From positions 1 through 42,372 of the forward strand of contig CAJXRF010000050.1 in NCBI GenBank assembly GCA_913058575.1: 42,372 bases of DNA. The letters run 5' to 3'. Shown here piece by piece: positions 29,337 to 42,355 of the stretch; the first letter of the stretch is position 1; every line of letters starts with the position of its first letter. The DNA is from an uncultured Bermanella sp. Its GTDB lineage: Bacteria > Pseudomonadota > Gammaproteobacteria > Pseudomonadales > Oceanobacteraceae. The translations under genes were made by a program, and so were the position numbers. Under the pieces are notes generated by a model that worked only from the letters and a program-made list of their open reading frames with translations, made no database searches and was not told where the DNA came from.

Positions 29337-30383
29337 CTATTTTTTAATACTGCTCATGGAAGCTTGCGCGGCTAATTGACTAATTTGTAATTCAGTTAAG
29401 CCATGGTTTTGGCTAAAAGTGGCATTGAGTTGTAAAGAAATTTGTTGAGGGCTCATATTGGTTTGTATAAGTTGCTGATTAAGTGACTGATAGTTTACTA
29501 AGTGCTGATTCCATTGAGCCCTTTGGGTATCTAATTTTTGCAAACGTAATGCGGCCTCAGCCGAGTATAGCTGTGTACGTAAAACTTGTAATTCTACGTT
29601 GCTAGCCCCTTCCTTAAGCGCCTTATTAATTGTTTGTTTAGAGCGTGAATAGCTTAACGTGGCTTGCTGATTTATTTTTAAGTCTTCGGGTAATTCGGTT
29701 GTTGTGGAGAATTGATGCAAATTATTCTCTGTGGCTAGCCTATTTAATGATTGGTTTCGTAACGCTTGAGATTTTTCAAAAAAAATCTCGCTTACTTGTT
29801 CTCCTAGTATGTCGGTGCGTAACTGAGATATGTATTCAGCGAGCTGGTAAACATTATGGTTATCTTTCGGGCTATGGCTTTCTAATAGAGCGTTGTACTG
29901 TTTAAAATAATCCACATAATCAATCAGAAGATCATTAGCAGTACTTAAAGCCGGTTCAGTTAGTTCATTATATAAGTGCCCTTGAATGATTTTGATTATA
30001 TCGGGCAAGGGAATGTGGTTGGTCATTAAGAAAAAGTAATCGAAGCGCTTCTTAATACTAGGAGTAATAATTAAATCTTTCTGTTCATTTAAATAAAATC
30101 CTCCTCGTATGTCAGTGTTTTTAAGGTAACTTGGGGGAGTAAGCAAAAATTTTTTGTAAGCGGCGACTATCGCTTCATTATTTTGTATAACTGTAGATTG
30201 AGGTGTGTTTTCAGATACATTTTCTATAATGATATGTGGCGCTATTCCTTTTGCTTTTTCAAAATCGTTAATAGTGACTTCTTGATTAGCTTGTAAATCA
30301 GTGGCGGTAAAATGATTGAGTACAGCCAGAATACAAAAAAATAGGCTGGCAAAAATCATAGCTGCAATAGAGTTTCTATTCAT
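29337..30383 (-). CDS. lifO: Lipase-specific foldase / chaperone
   Basis: 348-residue membrane-anchored steric chaperone that folds the cognate lipase in the periplasm before type II secretion. One N-terminal membrane segment (AAMIFASLFFCILAVLNHF, about 8-26) is followed by a variable linker. The Lif signature RFDYFFLMTNHIPL (about 113-126) corresponds to RxxFDY(F/C)LSxxGE, though Gly-Glu is replaced. The region ITPSIKKRFDY and a long helical remainder ending in LAAQASMS are also typical. It follows the lipase gene by 71 bp on the same strand, the standard lipA-lifO order. Confidence 0.87.
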   Translation of the reverse strand: MNRNSIAAMIFASLFFCILAVLNHFTATDLQANQEVTINDFEKAKGIAPHIIIENVSENTPQSTVIQNNEAIVAAYKKFLLTPPSYLKNTDIRGGFYLNEQKDLIITPSIKKRFDYFFLMTNHIPLPDIIKIIQGHLYNELTEPALSTANDLLIDYVDYFKQYNALLESHSPKDNHNVYQLAEYISQLRTDILGEQVSEIFFEKSQALRNQSLNRLATENNLHQFSTTTELPEDLKINQQATLSYSRSKQTINKALKEGASNVELQVLRTQLYSAEAALRLQKLDTQRAQWNQHLVNYQSLNQQLIQTNMSPQQISLQLNATFSQNHGLTELQISQLAAQASMSSIKK

Positions 30384-30454
30384 GAGTCATTGTCTTGATT
30401 TTATTTAATATTATTACAGCTTACAGGGCAGCTTTCGCTGCCTTGTAAAACCGG

Positions 30455-31477
30455 TTAAAGCCCGATATTTTTAAGGCGGTTAGCCTGTGTCACAAAGATA
30501 GAAGGCACATCAACAAACAACCTTGTGATGCCCGCGGTTTGGTTAATGGCATCATAATGATTGGTGGGATAGTCATCCCGTAATAACGTACCTAGTGCTT
30601 GGCCGCAACCGGGTACTAGGCCATCCCAAATGACACCTTCAGGCATGAAAGCCCCTACAATAGGAATAAGAGTAATATCCAAAGGGTCTAAAAGGTTTGT
30701 TACGGTGGCGTTACCACCCCATGAGAAATAACGTACACCGTTTACTAACTCTTGACCGCCACCGGTGTGACCAGCAATGCCGTTATTAATTTGGCTGCAA
30801 TCTACGGCTGGCATACCGGCAGGATATTCGGCATTAAAGCGGTCATAATCCTCAAGACTTGCTGCGACTAATAAGGCTTCAGAGCTTTGAGTGCCACGAT
30901 AATCGCTGTTGAAATCACCATCGCTTGGGTAAGTGGAACCGGCTTCAATAAAATTAAATAAAGTATCCATCAAAGTGACAGTGAGTAAATTCAATAATGA
31001 ATTACTTTGAATAAATTCAGAAAAATTGCCAGCAAAATGAGTGCCTTCATTCATGCAGTTACTGCAGCTAATAGAGGCAATTAAATCAGGACGGTGCTTT
31101 GCCACATAACGAGAAGCACTGGCCCCTTGACTATGTGCCATTAGGTTTACTTTTTGTGCACCGGTTATAGCAATAATTTCTTCCACATCACTCAAAAGTT
31201 CAGTCCCGCGAACCTCATGGAGAGCCAATGAGCTTAGGTTTACCACGTACACTTGCGCCCCTTCGTCACGAAGTTCCTCTGTGATGCCATGCCAGTAATC
31301 TATCAGACCTAGCGTATTATCAAACGCAAAAGCACCGGGTACCATCACAATAGGGTGTTGGGTTTGTGCGTAGGTGGATTTGGGGAAAAGCCAATCTAAT
31401 AAGCCTGCCTGAGTGGGAGCTATAGATGATATAGATATTAATACAGTACTGGCTAGCCAGCGGGTTAGTTTTGCCAC
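30455..31477 (-). CDS. Secreted triacylglycerol lipase (family I, foldase-dependent)
   Basis: 340-residue alpha/beta-hydrolase, exported (signal to about PTQAG). The oxyanion region is HPIVMVPGAFAFDN. The nucleophile elbow is AHSQGAS, with Ser116 (Ala in place of the usual first Gly). Catalytic Asp285 lies in WDGLVPGCG and catalytic His307 in NHYDAINQ, matching the DHxDxVNQ block of Pseudomonas-type lipases. A Cys pair (CSNC) sits after the elbow. With the foldase gene next to it, this is a classical lipase operon acting on long-chain triglycerides outside the cell. The AraC-type gene beyond the foldase and TGGACA direct repeats upstream suggest activator control. Confidence 0.9.
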   Translation of the reverse strand: MAKLTRWLASTVLISISSIAPTQAGLLDWLFPKSTYAQTQHPIVMVPGAFAFDNTLGLIDYWHGITEELRDEGAQVYVVNLSSLALHEVRGTELLSDVEEIIAITGAQKVNLMAHSQGASASRYVAKHRPDLIASISCSNCMNEGTHFAGNFSEFIQSNSLLNLLTVTLMDTLFNFIEAGSTYPSDGDFNSDYRGTQSSEALLVAASLEDYDRFNAEYPAGMPAVDCSQINNGIAGHTGGGQELVNGVRYFSWGGNATVTNLLDPLDITLIPIVGAFMPEGVIWDGLVPGCGQALGTLLRDDYPTNHYDAINQTAGITRLFVDVPSIFVTQANRLKNIGL

Positions 31478-34023: not shown

Positions 34024-36438
34024 ATGAGAAAAAAAATACTTGCCGCCGCCATGGTGTCCGCCATGACTCTTTCAGGGCCTGCCCATGCGGGTTGGTTTAG
34101 TGATGCCTGGGATGATGTAACCGATTGGGTTGGAGGGGCCGCCAGCGATACGGTTAGTTGGTTAGGTGGCGCCGCTTCCGACAGTGTTAGCTGGGTGTCG
34201 GGTGCTTGGGAAGACTCTGTAGATTGGACCGAGGGGGCTTGGAACACGGTAGAAGATTTTTACGGGGACGTACGCGATGCCGCCGGTACGGCCATTAGTT
34301 ATGGGGAATCTGGCATTCAAACGGTGTCTCTAATTGTGGGCAATGCCGTTCAAGCCACCGTGAATAATTACGATTACGGGCTGAATACCAATGATTGGCG
34401 TATTAAAGCATTAAGACTTCAAAACAAAATAGACAACCAAGAATTACTGGGCAATGCCTTATTTGTGGGCACCCATAATTCTTACAATGCCAAAGAGTAT
34501 TCCACCGCTTTCTCTTATTTAGATCCCAATCATAAAATGTCGTTATACGATCAGCTTGATGCGGGCATGGTGGCGCTGGAAATAGACGTGCATAAATTTA
34601 CCAAGGCCAACAGCTTTTGGATATGGGAGTGGGATAGCGAATTAATGTTGTGTCATGGCCAAAGTAACCATACCGGCTGCTCAACGTACGATCGTTCCTT
34701 TATTGAAGGTTTAGCCGAAATAGAATTATGGTTGAAAGGCAACTCTGAAGATGTGATTTTCATTTATCTTGAGGACCATATGGATGGTGATTACGATCAT
34801 GCCATAAGCTTCATTGAAGAAACCATAGGTGATTATGTTTATCGCCCCACGGGCAATAGTGGCTGTGAAGGCATGCCCATGGATGTTTCCAAGCAAGATA
34901 TTCTTAATAGCGGCAAGCAAGTCATTTTGTGGGGAGCAGGGGATGTTTGTTCTGCCAGTTCTGAATGGCAAAGTATTGCCTTTGGTGGCAGTGGTTGGAA
35001 CGGCGCGAATGTGGAAGAAGCGCGGGTGGGCATTTGTGAAACCTCAAGCGATGATCAATGGTTAAGGTATTTTGAAGACCGCACTGGCATGTCGTATATC
35101 TGGGGCGCGTCAGACAGCGATGAAAATATAGAGGCCGATGATATGCATGCTATGTATGCCTGCGGTGCTAACTTTATTGGTTTGGATATGCTGGGTTATG
35201 GAGACACCGACAGAATTAGCGGTGCAATTTGGAGCTGGAATGACAATGAACCCAATGACTCAGGTGGTAATGAAGATTGCGCCATGCAACGCAGCGACGG
35301 TCGTTTCAACGATGGTAACTGTGCCAGCACGTTAAACTTTTCTTGTGAAAACGAAAATGGCGATTGGTACATTACCGATACCGCGGGTGCTTGGAATGAA
35401 GGCTTTGATGCTTGTAGTGACGAAACCAATGGCCAATATACTTTTTCGGTGCCCACTAACTACCTTGAAAACCAGAAACTACTCACTGCAAAAGTAAATG
35501 CGGGGGTAAATTCCGCTTGGATGTTTTATTCCGATCTAGCCGAAGAAGGCAACTGGGTGGCCAATGTAGAATATGTGAACCTTACCGCTAATGGCGTGGC
35601 CTCCCAAAAAAGCACTGGCTGGAGCGGCGATGCATCCCGTGCCATTGATGGCAATACAGATGGCACCTATAACAATGGTTCGGTGACGCACACCAACTCT
35701 CAATCGCAAGATTGGTGGCAAGTAGATTTAAGTTCTTACGCTTATATTAACAGTGTAAAGCTTTATAACCGTACCGATTGCTGCACTTCTCGTTTGCAAA
35801 ATTTTTGGGTGATGATATCGGATACGCCGTTTAGCGGAGATGATTTAGATAGTGCACTGGCGCAGGCCAGTTGGAGTGATTATTACCAAGGAGAAATGCC
35901 CAGCGAAAGCGCTGTCATGGTGCAAGCTCATGGACGTTATTTACGTATTCAGCAAAGTACCAATAATTATTTAAGCCTTGCCGAAGTGCAAGTAATGGGC
36001 ACTCAAGGGTTAGGGTATTCTGCTACATTGGGCGGTAGCGGTGGTGGCAGCTTTGATGATACCAACGCTTATCAAACCAGTGGTGAGCAAAGTATTGCAA
36101 CGGTAAATATTCGCGCCGGTTCTCGTATCGATGCCATTGGTGTGAGTTACGCTAACGGTGACAGCGTTAATCACGGCGGCGGTGGTGGTAATGCATACAG
36201 CCTAAATTTAGCCAGTGGTGAATTCATTAGCCAAGTTGAAATTTGCGCAAGCTATACCTCTAATTACAACTCCGACACTGTACATTACGTGAAACTAGAC
36301 ACCAATTATGGCAATAGCTTATCTGGTGGAAATTCAGGATCTGGCACTTGCAGTGTGGTGGTTAGCGGTGTGGAAGTGGTGGGCTTTTATGGTGGCGCAG
36401 GCAGTGAGCTAGATCGTTTGGGTGTAATATATAAATAA
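34024..36438 (+). CDS. Secreted PLC-type TIM-barrel protein with three lectin-like regions
   Basis: 804-residue exported protein (signal peptide ending AHAG, about residue 23). Residues 24-80 form Trp-rich 11-residue repeats (GGAASDTVSWL, GGAASDSVSWV, SGAWEDSVDWT). Residues about 140-395 are a PI-PLC-X-like barrel: His151 in VGTHNSY, LEIDVH at 186-190, and His211 in LCHG as the second catalytic His. Residues about 398-512 look like C-type lectin with its halves in reversed order: EPN (409-411), EDC and FNDGNC come before AWNEGFDAC and VPTNYLENQKLL. Residues about 515-660 are an F-type lectin with the full fucose motif H-x26-R-x-D-x4-R (His556, Arg583, Asp585, Arg590) and the CC pair. Residues 664-804 are jacalin-like. 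It probably binds glycans and cleaves a phosphodiester lipid or GPI-like substrate. No linked genes explain the target. Confidence 0.85.
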   Translation: MRKKILAAAMVSAMTLSGPAHAGWFSDAWDDVTDWVGGAASDTVSWLGGAASDSVSWVSGAWEDSVDWTEGAWNTVEDFYGDVRDAAGTAISYGESGIQTVSLIVGNAVQATVNNYDYGLNTNDWRIKALRLQNKIDNQELLGNALFVGTHNSYNAKEYSTAFSYLDPNHKMSLYDQLDAGMVALEIDVHKFTKANSFWIWEWDSELMLCHGQSNHTGCSTYDRSFIEGLAEIELWLKGNSEDVIFIYLEDHMDGDYDHAISFIEETIGDYVYRPTGNSGCEGMPMDVSKQDILNSGKQVILWGAGDVCSASSEWQSIAFGGSGWNGANVEEARVGICETSSDDQWLRYFEDRTGMSYIWGASDSDENIEADDMHAMYACGANFIGLDMLGYGDTDRISGAIWSWNDNEPNDSGGNEDCAMQRSDGRFNDGNCASTLNFSCENENGDWYITDTAGAWNEGFDACSDETNGQYTFSVPTNYLENQKLLTAKVNAGVNSAWMFYSDLAEEGNWVANVEYVNLTANGVASQKSTGWSGDASRAIDGNTDGTYNNGSVTHTNSQSQDWWQVDLSSYAYINSVKLYNRTDCCTSRLQNFWVMISDTPFSGDDLDSALAQASWSDYYQGEMPSESAVMVQAHGRYLRIQQSTNNYLSLAEVQVMGTQGLGYSATLGGSGGGSFDDTNAYQTSGEQSIATVNIRAGSRIDAIGVSYANGDSVNHGGGGGNAYSLNLASGEFISQVEICASYTSNYNSDTVHYVKLDTNYGNSLSGGNSGSGTCSVVVSGVEVVGFYGGAGSELDRLGVIYK

Positions 36439-36514: not shown

Positions 36515-37363
36515 TCAATTTGGAGTTTTTAAGTACAATTTTGTTCTATTTTTAAAGTCTAATTTTTCGATATTTTCCCCCCAGTATTTATTTACAAGCT
36601 TATCGATTAAGCCACTTTTCTTGGCCTGCTCTAGGGCCTTTTCTATAATGTCTTTATATTTTTTACCTGCTTGCTCACCGTGTTTACTTAAATAAAAACG
36701 AAAATCACGATTGTAAATAAATACTAGGTTTTTCTCTATAGACAGGCCCGGATATTGGGGGGCTTCATTGACTATTTCATTAATACCCCTAGAGAAGTAG
36801 TCATAGTCTCTGCCTGCAGCAACTTGATTAAAAATAGCCCGCCAATTGCCATGCTGTTCGATATAGCCCAATTGATTCATCTTCCAAACTTCTACATCAA
36901 ACCAATTGTGTCCTATGCCGCCCAGTAAATTTAGTTTTCGAAAATCCTCAAGTGTTTTTGTATTATTAAATTTGTATTGATTACCCGAGCGAATTAACAA
37001 TATTCTTTTACCAATTAAGCCATTGGTTAACCCCATTTTAATGGGGGTGTATTGTTCATTCCTAGCAGAGGATTCCACCATCCAGAATATGGATATACGG
37101 CCACTGTCTAAATAATACTTAATGCGAAGATGAGGCAATTCTTGGGTAACTAGCTTAGCTGTGTGTCCAATATCAGTAATTGAACGTTTTAACAACTCAT
37201 GGAAATAAAGATAAAGCTTTGGACTGTCGGTTAAAATAGGAACGTGTAGGGTAATACTAGCTCCATAGGCAGGTGAGAATACCGCTAGGGTCAGTAAACC
37301 TATATTCATTACAGTGCATAAAATATATTTTTTTATGAAATCTGCCATATAGGTCTTCAGCAT
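36515..37363 (-). CDS. Orphan periplasmic solute-binding-like protein
   Basis: 282-residue exported protein. The hydrophobic signal segment lies at about 15-35 (ILCTVMNIGLLTLAVFSPAYG). The body is a diverged family-3 type binding protein: ASITLHVPILTDSPKLYLYF, LDSGRISIFWMVESSARNEQ, LEDFRKLNLLGGIGHNWFDV, then a C-terminal ALEQAKKSGLIDKLVNKYWG helix of the usual SBP ending. ATG at 37363 is used; a second ATG is at 37348. The chemoreceptor gene starts further upstream on the same strand, and the 75-bp gap has a hairpin, so the two may share a message. A binding-protein-to-chemoreceptor relay is possible but speculative. No ABC transporter nearby. Confidence 0.72.
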   Translation of the reverse strand: MLKTYMADFIKKYILCTVMNIGLLTLAVFSPAYGASITLHVPILTDSPKLYLYFHELLKRSITDIGHTAKLVTQELPHLRIKYYLDSGRISIFWMVESSARNEQYTPIKMGLTNGLIGKRILLIRSGNQYKFNNTKTLEDFRKLNLLGGIGHNWFDVEVWKMNQLGYIEQHGNWRAIFNQVAAGRDYDYFSRGINEIVNEAPQYPGLSIEKNLVFIYNRDFRFYLSKHGEQAGKKYKDIIEKALEQAKKSGLIDKLVNKYWGENIEKLDFKNRTKLYLKTPN

Positions 37364-39607: not shown

Positions 39608-42355
39608 TTATTGATTTAACAGGGTGTCATTCCAATCATCAGGCAGTTCCATCATGAACACCTCTCGGTGGTCTAATTGCCCCCCCCAGTTAGACGACCA
39701 GTAAATTCGGTTACCCGATAAATTAATGGCCGCTGGTGCTTCATCGCGATAATCACCGTTATAAACATTGTAAGCTGGAGAGATGCGCCAAATAATGGGG
39801 TCTTCCTCTTCAGGTTTAATCTGAATCATCATGAATTGATTAGCCCCCCACAGGCTGTCATCTTTTGAATAGGTATTCATGAAAATCCAGCCGGGTTTGC
39901 TTTGTGGCATTTTTCCATAATGAAAACTCATGGCCCAACCAAGGTCGCTATGACTGGCCACTTCTATGCGGTTGTCATAACCGGCGTTTGTACCGTTTAC
40001 ATTAATTGCATCAAGGCGGTCAGTGCGATTATTTTGGCTGATAAACATTTCTTGTTCGTTCATATCAAATGACCAACCGGAATGGGTTTCGCCAATGGAA
40101 ATTTTTACTGGAGTTTGTGCTTGGTAATCAAAGTCCACGGGCCATAAGTGTGGGCCATCAAACCAAGTGCCCACATACCCTAATGAAGATTGATGGTCGG
40201 CATCGGTCCATTTGCGGCCCATATGAATCACCACACCGGTTCCCAAAGGTGACATCTCGATCATGTTGGGACGGAATTTAAAAAAGACGTTGTCTTTTTC
40301 TAAGTCTAGTGGTGAACCAGCCAAATCCTGTGGAGTAAGACTATGAGTGGTGTCGGTGGATACTTGGTAATGAATAAAGGCATCCACCAAGTAGGTTTGC
40401 ATGTTGTTGAAGTTCTCACCGTAATGCACGGCCATCCACGCCCAGTGATCGCTGTCGTTGGAAGAATCACCTTCTACATCATTGTAAATTTTATTCGCGT
40501 TAGGAAATTGCTCGCTAAAGTCTTTAATGAGTTCGCGTGAGGCTTCTTGATTGGTAATGTCATCAATCATGTGAAACTGCATGCCTTGCACATAATAAAC
40601 ACGATTAGGGTGGCGACCCGATGTGTCCCAACGTACCTCTTGGTTTTCCCCAATGCTGGCACCTGAGCCATTTTCTAATTGGGCAATGATGTCACCGCTC
40701 TCACGATCCATGACCCAACTGGAAGTGGAATTACTCCCAAATACCAATATGTATTGGCCGCTGGAGTTTTCTGGCGAATAGCGCGAGTAAACTATGAGGG
40801 CGTCGTTGCTTTCAATCATGGCGGTATTGGTTAAGCGTTTTATTTTAGCCCCTGTGGTGGGGTCTATATGAAACTCGCCTACAGCAGGAGGCAGTTCCGT
40901 ATACACAGGATTAATGACATTTTTGTTTTGTACAAACAAGCTTTGGCCTTGGGTACTGGCAGGCTGTGTGACCACAATAATTTTATGATTTTCACTGCTA
41001 CCATTTAGACTGTAATTAACGGTTAATAATTGAGTGCCGGTATCGCTGCTGGCGAACAGACACATATTATTGGCAACCGAATTGTCACAGGCTTCATTGC
41101 CAGTGACCGAGTATTCTATGGCAAGGCCACTGGCATCGTTTAAGTTGCCCAAAGTTATGGCAAGGGTTTGATTCACGTTGGTGTATAGAGTTTTCACCAC
41201 GTCATTAGTGTTTAAACCGGGTAATAAGTCTTGTTGTGAGCCTCCCGTTCCACCGCCTGTGCCGCCATCGGTTCCACCGTCAGTTCCTCCGTCAACAAGA
41301 CATTCATCACCGTCGTCTACATCTGTGGTGGTAAACGTAAAGACATGGGCGGTTTGCGTTGCATTGCCTAGTTCATCCATACACTTGCTGTAGATTTGGT
41401 AAGGGTGATTATACAAGGCCGCTTGCCAAGTTTTGCTGTGGGTTAAGCCATCAATTGTATTTAGGCTAAAGCGCATTTGTTCGAAGTCTAGGGTCGGTGA
41501 GTAATCAAAACGACAGGAAGCGATTTCGTTGGTGCTGATGGCTAACGGTACACGATTATCCAAGGTATAAATGGCGTGGTTACTGGGAAATGAACTCACT
41601 ACTAAAGGCTCTAGGGTGTCTTCATAAGGGGCGTAGCTAATTACCAGCTTGGGCCGATACTGCACTTCTGGGTAGTTGGATGTGGCGGTGGTATTTTGTA
41701 TGTTGGTGTTATCTTGCTGATGGTACAAGGCCCAACCTTGATTGCTACAAAGACGACTTTGTATGCACTGAACATCACTTGTTACATCCACCTCATAAGC
41801 GTGTCCCGCGTCAACGCCGCGTTCCGAGAAAAAGCTGGGGGAATCATTAATACTTTTAAGTACTCCAGAGAAATAATCGGCGTTTAAATCATCAGGGGAA
41901 TCGGGGTCTGACAGTTGCCATTTTACATCGCTGCTACCCGAGTCATCTCTAGACTCATTATTGGCACCTGCCCTAAAGCCTGTGCCTACTTGCCAGCCAT
42001 TAGCGTAAGCCGCACCAAGGTTATCAGGGTCTAGAATTTGCCGTACTGAAATTTCTGACTCAGTATAACTGTACCCGCCTACGTGATAGAAAATAATTTT
42101 GGCTGACTCCACTGCGCCTTTTTGTGTTAAGTCTCCTAATTGAAAGTGTTCAAGATTGTAATATCGCTGGGTACCTGTGTAGCGGAAGAAATGGGTTTCT
42201 CGTTGTGAGTGTTGATGACGTGAGCCGCTGAACGTAACTGAAGTGGCCCCTGTGTACTGATTGTTTCCTTGTTGGTACTCAATTATCTCACTAGCCTGAG
42301 CACTTGCTTGCATAAAGCAAAGGGCACACAGGGTGCTGGAAAATTGTTTTAACAT
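39608..42355 (-). CDS. Secreted DNRLRE-domain protein with beta-propeller-like C-terminal half
   Basis: 915-residue exported protein (signal peptide ending SAQAS, about residue 22). Residues about 40-245 match a DNRLRE/CBM96-like beta-sandwich (VESAKIIFYHVGGYSYTESE, VDVTSDVQCIQSR, WALYHQQDN, YRPKLVISYAPYED). A Cys-containing beta region at about 250-345 follows, then a Gly/Asp/Thr linker (DGGTDGGTDGGTGGGTGG). Residues about 480-912 are rich in short repeats like WVMDRESGDIIAQLENG, VYYVQGMQFHMIDD, WSFDMNEQEMFIS and NRIYWSSNWGGQLD, as in beta-propeller enzymes or binding proteins. CBM96-type modules bind uronic polysaccharides, so a role at algal polysaccharide is plausible but unproven. Upstream GAGAGG sits 5 bases before the ATG, at the window edge. 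Confidence 0.8.
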   Translation of the reverse strand: MLKQFSSTLCALCFMQASAQASEIIEYQQGNNQYTGATSVTFSGSRHQHSQRETHFFRYTGTQRYYNLEHFQLGDLTQKGAVESAKIIFYHVGGYSYTESEISVRQILDPDNLGAAYANGWQVGTGFRAGANNESRDDSGSSDVKWQLSDPDSPDDLNADYFSGVLKSINDSPSFFSERGVDAGHAYEVDVTSDVQCIQSRLCSNQGWALYHQQDNTNIQNTTATSNYPEVQYRPKLVISYAPYEDTLEPLVVSSFPSNHAIYTLDNRVPLAISTNEIASCRFDYSPTLDFEQMRFSLNTIDGLTHSKTWQAALYNHPYQIYSKCMDELGNATQTAHVFTFTTTDVDDGDECLVDGGTDGGTDGGTGGGTGGSQQDLLPGLNTNDVVKTLYTNVNQTLAITLGNLNDASGLAIEYSVTGNEACDNSVANNMCLFASSDTGTQLLTVNYSLNGSSENHKIIVVTQPASTQGQSLFVQNKNVINPVYTELPPAVGEFHIDPTTGAKIKRLTNTAMIESNDALIVYSRYSPENSSGQYILVFGSNSTSSWVMDRESGDIIAQLENGSGASIGENQEVRWDTSGRHPNRVYYVQGMQFHMIDDITNQEASRELIKDFSEQFPNANKIYNDVEGDSSNDSDHWAWMAVHYGENFNNMQTYLVDAFIHYQVSTDTTHSLTPQDLAGSPLDLEKDNVFFKFRPNMIEMSPLGTGVVIHMGRKWTDADHQSSLGYVGTWFDGPHLWPVDFDYQAQTPVKISIGETHSGWSFDMNEQEMFISQNNRTDRLDAINVNGTNAGYDNRIEVASHSDLGWAMSFHYGKMPQSKPGWIFMNTYSKDDSLWGANQFMMIQIKPEEEDPIIWRISPAYNVYNGDYRDEAPAAINLSGNRIYWSSNWGGQLDHREVFMMELPDDWNDTLLNQ

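What the first reader, a model, noticed from the sequence alone, without database searches (positions are those of the whole stretch)
34024..36438. One secreted protein joins a PLC-type catalytic barrel to C-type-, F-type- and jacalin-like lectin regions
The reading frame shows a PI-PLC-X-like barrel with both catalytic His in place (GTHNSY, LCHG), a C-type-lectin-like segment (EPN, EDC, WND-like motif), an F-type lectin whose fucose-binding motif H-x26-R-x-D-x4-R is met exactly by His556, Arg583, Asp585 and Arg590, and a C-terminal jacalin-like fold with HGGGGG and GSELDRLGVIY. Three unrelated lectin folds on one phospholipase-like enzyme would give high-avidity targeting to fucose/mannose-rich surfaces such as algal or animal mucus. 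It could be a colonisation factor, a toxin or a scavenging enzyme.
Basis: partly seen in the sequence, partly recalled or inferred. Interest (0 to 1): 0.78.

Follow-up and report, generated by a model that had tools for sequence, protein, structure and literature searches.

The report
Phospholipase with circularly permuted C-type lectin
A probably marine bacterium encodes a secreted-looking phospholipase-like enzyme fused to three sugar-binding modules, and one of them, a C-type lectin, appears to be built in swapped order: its second half comes first in the chain, yet the two halves are predicted to form one normal-looking calcium- and sugar-binding fold.

Summary
In detail: window 34024-36438 encodes 804 residues with a signal-like start, a PI-PLC barrel, and C-type, F-type and jacalin-like lectin regions.

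Support: (1) the native profile hits solved C-type lectins in two stretches (49 of 60 rows shown), reversed in the one alignment printed; (2) the re-ordered profile hits them in one stretch, best 7.1e-17; (3) a rotation scan peaks at the junction, 46.2 against 27.1 bits; (4) AlphaFold2 gives order b3-b4-b5-b1-a1-a2-b2; (5) 34 of 80 homologous frames end within 2 residues of the module; (6) of 13 giant proteins with about 4-12 tandem copies, 12 start with the C-half and 13 end with the N-half; (7) four cysteines and D504/E508 are invariant in 78 of 78 rows.

The enzyme shows the residue pattern of Ca2+-dependent PLCs. Function (glycan-guided cleavage of inositol lipids) is inferred. The searches run found no report of a permuted C-type lectin domain.

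The parts
34024..34089 (+). signal-peptide-like N-terminus (aa 1-22, MRKK...AHA)
   Evidence: read by eye from the translation; no predictor was run; a type II secretin gene is in the genome
34090..34287 (+). 11-residue repeats (aa 23-88), possibly amphipathic
   Evidence: aa 23-95: 23 of 62 identities at offset 11 and 12 of 51 at offset 22; the other offsets from 3 to 24 give 0.14 or less
34387..35199 (+). PI-PLC-type catalytic barrel (aa 122-392) with H151, N152, E186, D188, H211, E250
35212..35352 (+). first half of the permuted C-type lectin domain (aa 397-443) = canonical C-terminal half: E409-P-N411, E417-D-C419, N429-D430, C433, C441
   Evidence: Lectin_C positions 71-106 of 107; this stretch of the family profile maps to residues 78-124 of the CL-11 chain 9srk
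35356..35562 (+). second half of the permuted C-type lectin domain (aa 445-513) = canonical N-terminal half: C464, W499, D504, E508-G-x-W511
35563..36003 (+). F-type (fucolectin-like) domain (aa 514-660), fucose-motif residues H556, R583, D585, R590, adjacent Cys586-Cys587
   Evidence: motif text from PMC5712786 passages
36025..36435 (+). jacalin/griffithsin-like lectin domain (aa 668-804)
   Evidence: Pfam Jacalin 9e-17, 9.8e-18; 7kmv, griffithsin and plant lectins

Best explanation
A secreted-looking PI-PLC of the Ca2+-dependent residue pattern, fused to a naturally circularly permuted C-type lectin domain and then to an F-type and a jacalin-like lectin. In the permuted domain the chain enters at the long loop beside the Ca2+/sugar site, runs b3-b4-b5, passes through about five residues (443-447) into b1-a1-a2-b2, and leaves at the long loop again. 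The window protein has a residue of the right kind at each canonical Ca2+ ligand position examined. The permutation moves both chain ends from the pole far from the sugar site (recalled) to the sugar-binding side, so the PLC barrel and the next lectin should sit beside the glycan site. Proposed action (inferred): the lectins hold glycan-rich membrane surfaces or glycosylated inositol lipids while the barrel cleaves the inositol phospholipid. Shown: gene anatomy, homology, reversed order of the halves, conserved residues. Predicted: the fold. Inferred: sugar binding, catalysis, secretion, biology.
For: Native-order profile: two stretches on 49 of the 60 rows shown, in reversed order on the one alignment printed, CL-11. 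Re-ordered profile: one stretch, up to positions 4-115 of 115, best 7.1e-17 on SP-D (11-114); 156 distinct sequences at E <= 1, 60 shown. Rotation scan peaks at the junction for 4 of 4 canonical targets. Re-ordered window sequence matches Lectin_C 4-106 at 32.7 bits, native 71-106 at 26.4. AlphaFold2: module pLDDT 84, core blocks mostly 91-98; PLC plus module pLDDT 92.2, pTM 0.91; seven elements in permuted order. 34 of 80 frames end at the module. Arrays read (CN)n. E409/N411/E417/N429/D430 have the spacing of SP-D Glu321/Asn323/Glu329/Asn341/Asp342 (PMC6005524, passages). D504, E508 invariant in 78 of 78. E417/N429 exchange as a pair with Q417/D429 in 74 of 78. Barrel.
Confidence: 0.82

Rival explanations
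1. Swapped assembly: the C-half of one chain (or one array repeat) pairs with the N-half of another chain or neighbouring repeat, so each fold is a canonical lectin made by segment exchange rather than an intrachain permutation.
For: Array register is cyclic; segment swapping is recorded for collagen IV NC1 in the C-type lectin-like superfamily (PMC3779223, passages).
Against: Single-chain models are confident across both halves. In arrays the C-to-N gap is short (median 1 by profile ends, 91 of 113 at 8 or less) while N-to-C is longer (median 10, 41 of 101 at 8 or less; some arrays are near-copies of each other). In 34 of 80 frames the chain ends with the N-half.
Confidence: 0.1
2. Truncated lectin: only the EPN/ND half is C-type-like and the following 70 residues are an unrelated linker.
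For: Pfam sees only positions 70-106 in chain order, and the N-half of the window sequence alone gave no Pfam match.
Against: N-half profile hits C-type lectin N-halves; rotation scan; predicted fold; four invariant cysteines spread over both halves.
Confidence: 0.03
3. One reading: an ordinary C-type lectin segment in a three-lectin colonisation factor or toxin.
For: All three lectin families are present; secretion is likely.
Against: The order of the halves is reversed. By record title, relatives come from marine, root, sponge and other sources, and their tails vary, which does not single out a toxin role.
Confidence: 0.05
4. Functional rival, not exclusive with the permuted fold: a scavenging enzyme that cleaves inositol lipids of dead algal or animal membranes, with lectins that only anchor it.
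For: Relatives include Thalassolituus and Oleispira (known as oil-degrading marine genera, recalled); eight paralogues in this genome; a hydrolase gene and a lipase-chaperone gene 2.5 and 3.6 kb upstream.
Against: No substrate shown.
Confidence: 0.45

Closest known systems
C-type lectin domains of collectins (SP-D, CL-11, MBP) and DC-SIGN
   Same: Both halves recognisable in sequence; four core cysteines and the EPN...E...ND positions with the spacing of SP-D; D...E pair in the other half
   Different: Halves in reverse chain order; chain ends in the long loop beside the sugar site; fused to an enzyme in bacteria
Bacterial and eukaryotic PI-PLC catalytic domains (Listeria 1aod/2plc, Pseudomonas sp. 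Ca2+-dependent 5fyo/5fyp, PLC-gamma/delta)
   Different: Distant sequence (12-17% identity rows); lectin modules attached
F-type lectins (FBP32 3cqo, fucolectin-related protein 2j1r, platelet aggregation factor 3le0)
   Same: Domain and fucose-motif residues
   Different: Here a module of a PLC protein; Shewanella surugensis L051 has PLC, permuted lectin and F-type tail, no jacalin found
Jacalin-related lectins and griffithsin
   Same: Jacalin profile over 668-802
   Different: Fused to an enzyme; Chitinimonas L089 has PLC, two permuted lectins and jacalin
Known permutations in sugar-acting proteins: two Ca2+-dependent carbohydrate-binding module families (Montanier 2010, seen only as a reference) and GH70 against GH13 barrels (PMC11046441, passage)
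   Same: Precedent for natural circular permutation in carbohydrate-active proteins
   Different: Not the C-type lectin fold

Membership tests
C-type lectin domain (Lectin_C / CTLD) | whole-domain profile match in normal chain order | tested here: not met
   native window module matches only positions 71-106 of 107; whole protein below cut-off
C-type lectin domain (Lectin_C / CTLD) | whole-domain profile match after circular re-ordering | tested here: met
   window: positions 4-106, 32.7 bits; 24 of 24 re-ordered members match at E <= 0.001, best 1.9e-13. Note that 78 of 78 native members also match at E <= 0.001, best 1.8e-11 (the matched model positions were shown only for the first member)
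C-type lectin domain (Lectin_C / CTLD) | four core cysteines | tested here: met
   C419, C433, C441, C464 in 78 of 78
C-type lectin domain (Lectin_C / CTLD) | principal Ca2+/sugar site: EPN, E, ND | tested here: met
   E409, N411, E417, N429, D430; family: EPN 75 of 78, E417 47 (Q 31), N429 46 (D 30), D430 78; spacing as in SP-D
C-type lectin domain (Lectin_C / CTLD) | double-loop fold | tested here: inconclusive
   predicted elements agree in permuted order; no permutation-aware superposition possible; weak
C-type lectin domain (Lectin_C / CTLD) | Ca2+-dependent sugar binding | not testable with these tools
   needs protein
PI-PLC (X domain) | curated Pfam cut-off for PI-PLC-X | tested here: not met
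   18.2 bits against 23.1
PI-PLC (X domain) | sequence-profile relation to solved PI-PLCs | tested here: met
   1aod, 2plc 1.4e-8
PI-PLC (X domain) | PLC barrel fold | tested here: met
PI-PLC (X domain) | two catalytic His plus Ca2+ ligands N, E, D, E (roles recalled from PLC-delta1) | tested here: met
   H151, N152, E186, D188, H211, E250; each in 69 to 76 of 76 rows, five partial rows left out; aligned with PLC-gamma1
PI-PLC (X domain) | hydrolysis of phosphatidylinositol | not testable with these tools
   needs protein
F-type lectin | domain and fucose motif H...RxDx4R | tested here: met
   spacing 26, printed motif 24, FBP32 has 26 in the alignment
Jacalin-like lectin | curated Pfam cut-off | tested here: met
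   62.2 bits against 22

The most novel reading that the evidence does not exclude
[quoted passage not shown] It is used singly behind PLC barrels and in strings of up to about 12 in giant proteins. It arose through tandem duplication followed by loss of the outer halves. It turns the lectin round, so that the sugar site faces the fused enzyme and the pair reads glycan and inositol lipid together, for example glycosylated inositol lipids or GPI anchors.
Probability: 0.3. Interest if true: 0.82.

Novelty: new variant of a known kind. Interest (0 to 1): 0.72.

Why it matters
C-type lectins are among the best-studied sugar-binding folds (general knowledge), and a 2014 review lists them as expressed only in animals (PMC4444583, figure legend seen as a passage). 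A natural permuted version with its Ca2+ ligand positions kept would show that the fold tolerates opening at the binding loop, explain why profile annotation sees only a half-domain in the window protein, and give a ready-made scaffold in which sugar site and enzyme sit side by side. The (CN)n arrays offer a record of how such a permutation can arise. It also gives a testable hypothesis: bacterial PI-PLCs steered to glycosylated membranes by interchangeable lectin tails.

Tried and rejected
It was set aside after the half-by-half searches, the rotation scan and the models. The first re-ordered sequence tried gained only 2.7 bits over native (27.7 against 25.0). A differently cut version gave 32.7 against 26.4, so the single-sequence gain is modest and depends on the cut; the family profiles carry the case.

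NCBIfam gave no match at E <= 1, PHROGs none at 0.01, and plasmid and phage records none for the core at 1e-5. A phylum sample of 398 genomes had 2 with a match: the window's own genome, and one canonical lectin matched only at profile positions 21-61. In the window's family 24 of 44 genomes have a match. So the module is patchy. Foldseek listed 41 matches for the module at E <= 10, none at 0.001, and no whole-domain match; VIA listed the N-half only. As both appear to align in chain order, that absence shows nothing by itself.

Mutual information gave mostly weak pairs. The E417-N429 pair ranked first, but it lies within one half, so it does not test the permutation, and it may partly reflect shared descent.

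Literature: searches for a permuted C-type lectin and for bacterial PLC-lectin, F-type or C-type lectin reports. Passages were opened in PMC4444583, PMC3779223, PMC8206207, PMC7824862, PMC8195603, PMC10076258, PMC11046441 and PMC6868369; none of these passages describes a permuted C-type lectin domain. The other listed papers were judged by title and start of abstract only. One search had 26 papers, of which 8 were listed. Subscription papers and preprints are mostly not held.

Rows dropped: the scan of genome contigs kept 80 of 85 confirmed stretches, 78 distinct loci. Alignment A2 used 77 of the 82 distinct module rows plus the window; left out were L089's second module, L082, L111, L117 and L120. 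A6 used 73 of the 79 rows plus the window. A3 used 24 of the 42 re-ordered rows. A4 used 17 rows plus the window, and most of its rows begin with a few residues of the preceding half. Five partial PLC rows were left out of the counts. The tails are ten that I picked from the 46 frames with more than 2 residues after the module.

Full report
WHAT WAS CHECKED. The reading frame 34024-36438 (+) encodes 804 residues. Jacalin and F5/8-type profiles pass their cut-offs; PI-PLC-X and Lectin_C are below cut-off on the full chain. The F-type region matches solved F-type lectins with E down to 2e-24, and the jacalin region matches jacalin-related lectins and griffithsin. On its own the C-terminal part gives Jacalin 9.8e-18 and F5_F8_type_C_2 3.2e-16. 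The fucose motif has 26 residues between His and Arg. A review prints 24 (PMC5712786, passages), but solved FBP32 shows the same 26 in the ungapped part of the alignment (counted by hand).

THE UNEXPECTED PART. The Lectin_C match covers only the last third of the model (positions 70-106 of 107). Directly after it, about 70 residues read like the first part of a C-type lectin (W...C...F..P...EN..L...W....D...EG.W). I tested whether the domain is circularly permuted.

(a) Profile of 78 homologous modules in native order against solved-structure sequences: 132 sequences at E <= 1, 60 shown, 49 of these with two stretches. In the one alignment printed, CL-11 chain 9srk, query 16-62 falls on residues 78-124 and query 61-133 on residues 5-75, that is, in reversed order. 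For the other rows only the best stretch is listed; it is the C-half on most, and the N-half on the three tetranectin rows. Three rows are multi-domain chains (mannose receptor 2), where two stretches need not come from one domain. (b) Profile of 24 re-ordered modules: 156 sequences at E <= 1, 60 shown, continuous matches up to positions 4-115 of 115, best SP-D at 7.1e-17 (positions 11-114). The native profile's best total score is nearly as high (60.7 against 64.7 bits), so the difference lies in order and contiguity. (c) N-half profile, 18 rows: best hits are the N-terminal halves of DC-SIGN and tetranectin, best 2.9e-4; of 30 sequences at E <= 10 the weak tail includes non-lectins (alpha-protein kinase 1 at 0.38 and 0.39, synaptotagmin-7 at 1.3). 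(d) Rotation scan: the 78-row profile rotated to 20 start points, six residues apart, and scored on four canonical-order C-type lectins (SP-D, two mannose-receptor domains, one bacterial lectin). The mean best single-stretch score is 27.1 bits at the native start and 46.2 at residue 445, the junction of the halves; all four have their best value there, SP-D and one mannose-receptor domain tied with the next start point, 451. (e) Pfam on single sequences: 24 of 24 re-ordered and 78 of 78 native members match Lectin_C at E <= 0.001; for the window the match grows from positions 71-106 (26.4 bits) to 4-106 (32.7 bits).

IS THE UNIT REALLY C-HALF THEN N-HALF? First, in 78 named loci the module was found in 80 reading frames, and 34 of 80 stop within 2 residues of its end. 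These include Thalassolituus, Microbulbifer, Chitinimonas, Shewanella, Marinomonas and two Mycobacterium species (in the last two the match ends at profile position 106-107 of 129, so the module is shortened). Two of the 80 frames run off the end of the fetched stretch. Second, 13 very large proteins of the same bacterial family (open frames 1,535-2,652 aa in the fetched stretches) hold strings of modules. Scored half by half, 12 of 13 start with a C-half and 13 of 13 end with an N-half, with equal numbers of both (12, 10, 9 or 4 pairs) in 12 of 13. The thirteenth (L045, 3 C and 4 N) shows a first C-half by eye but below threshold. The C-to-N gap is short (median 1, 91 of 113 at 8 or less); the N-to-C gap is longer (median 10, 41 of 101 at 8 or less). 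Some arrays are near-copies of each other, so these are not independent counts. Because a string is cyclic, pairing with a neighbour is not strictly excluded there.

CALCIUM AND SUGAR SITES. SP-D uses Glu321, Asn323, Glu329, Asn341 and Asp342 for Ca2+ and sugar, and a loop starting at Asp297 for further Ca2+ (PMC6005524, passages). The window has E409, N411, E417, N429, D430 with identical spacing. D504 and E508, in the other half, correspond to the second site (inferred from the alignment and recalled numbering) and are invariant in 78 of 78. D418 is D in 58 of 78; D412 is D in 19 and N in 57 of 78. EPN is present in 75 of 78, the four cysteines in 78 of 78. E417/N429 is exchanged for Q417/D429 as a pair: 45 and 29 of 78, 4 others, which looks like a charge-balanced swap at a working metal site.

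FAMILY AND CONTEXT. The window's genome carries eight such modules, each with a PLC-region match. In the same family 24 of 44 genomes match; in the phylum sample 2 of 398, one of them the window's genome and the other a canonical lectin. Tails vary. Of ten tails picked for scanning, three had ricin-B, two jacalin, one F5/8 type, two B_lectin (one of them just below its cut-off), one PPC, and one FRG1/fascin-like matches. The core thus looks like a chassis to which different tails, most of them of glycan-binding families, are joined. A type II secretin is present in the genome, fitting export of a protein with a signal-like N-terminus (not predicted by a program).

MECHANISM. In the canonical fold both chain ends lie together away from the sugar site (recalled). 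Here they lie in the long loop, and the PLC barrel (last barrel strand 384-387 in the model) ends about 20 residues before EPN. The likeliest effect is to put enzyme and sugar site on one side, so that binding of surface glycans orients the barrel to the membrane. This is inference. A plain anchoring role for scavenging lipids is equally open.

PRIOR REPORTS. Four searches for permuted C-type lectins and five for bacterial PLC-lectin, F-type or C-type lectin reports turned up none among the papers opened as passages or judged from listings. Nearest precedents seen: segment swapping in collagen IV NC1 (PMC3779223, passages), circular permutation between two Ca2+-dependent carbohydrate-binding module families (reference only), the GH70/GH13 barrel permutation (PMC11046441, passage), and an F-type lectin domain that directs a bacterial fucosidase (reference only).

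Noticed in passing
L037-L049 (relatives of the same family): Giant proteins with strings of about 4-12 permuted C-type lectin modules; 12 of 13 start with the C-half by profile and 13 of 13 end with the N-half.
   Followed up: yes
window 34090-34308: Eleven-residue repeats (DWVGGAASDTV-like) after the signal region, 23 of 62 identities at offset 11; possibly an amphipathic helix. One weakly related stretch in another genome, G023:C136, E 1.5e-4.
   Followed up: partly
window 35272-35310 (residues E417 and N429): The pair E417/N429 is replaced as a pair by Q417/D429 across the family, 45 and 29 of 78, 4 others.
   Followed up: partly
window 29337-31477 (-): Lipase-chaperone gene next to an alpha/beta-hydrolase gene, a likely secreted lipase pair near the PLC gene.
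   Followed up: no
window 39608-42355 (-) and 36515-37363 (-): Two ORFs (915 and 282 aa) near the finding without any Pfam match at 0.001.
   Followed up: no
L028: Jacalin-like region behind what looks by eye like an endonuclease/exonuclease/phosphatase-type enzyme, another possible enzyme-lectin fusion.
   Followed up: no
L128, L129, L133: A small bacterial protein with a C-type lectin domain in normal order (L128); and flagellin-like proteins (by eye) with a C-type lectin match inside (L129, L133).
   Followed up: partly
L117, L120: Mycobacterium gastri and M. innocens carry PLC plus a shortened permuted module at the C-terminus.
   Followed up: no
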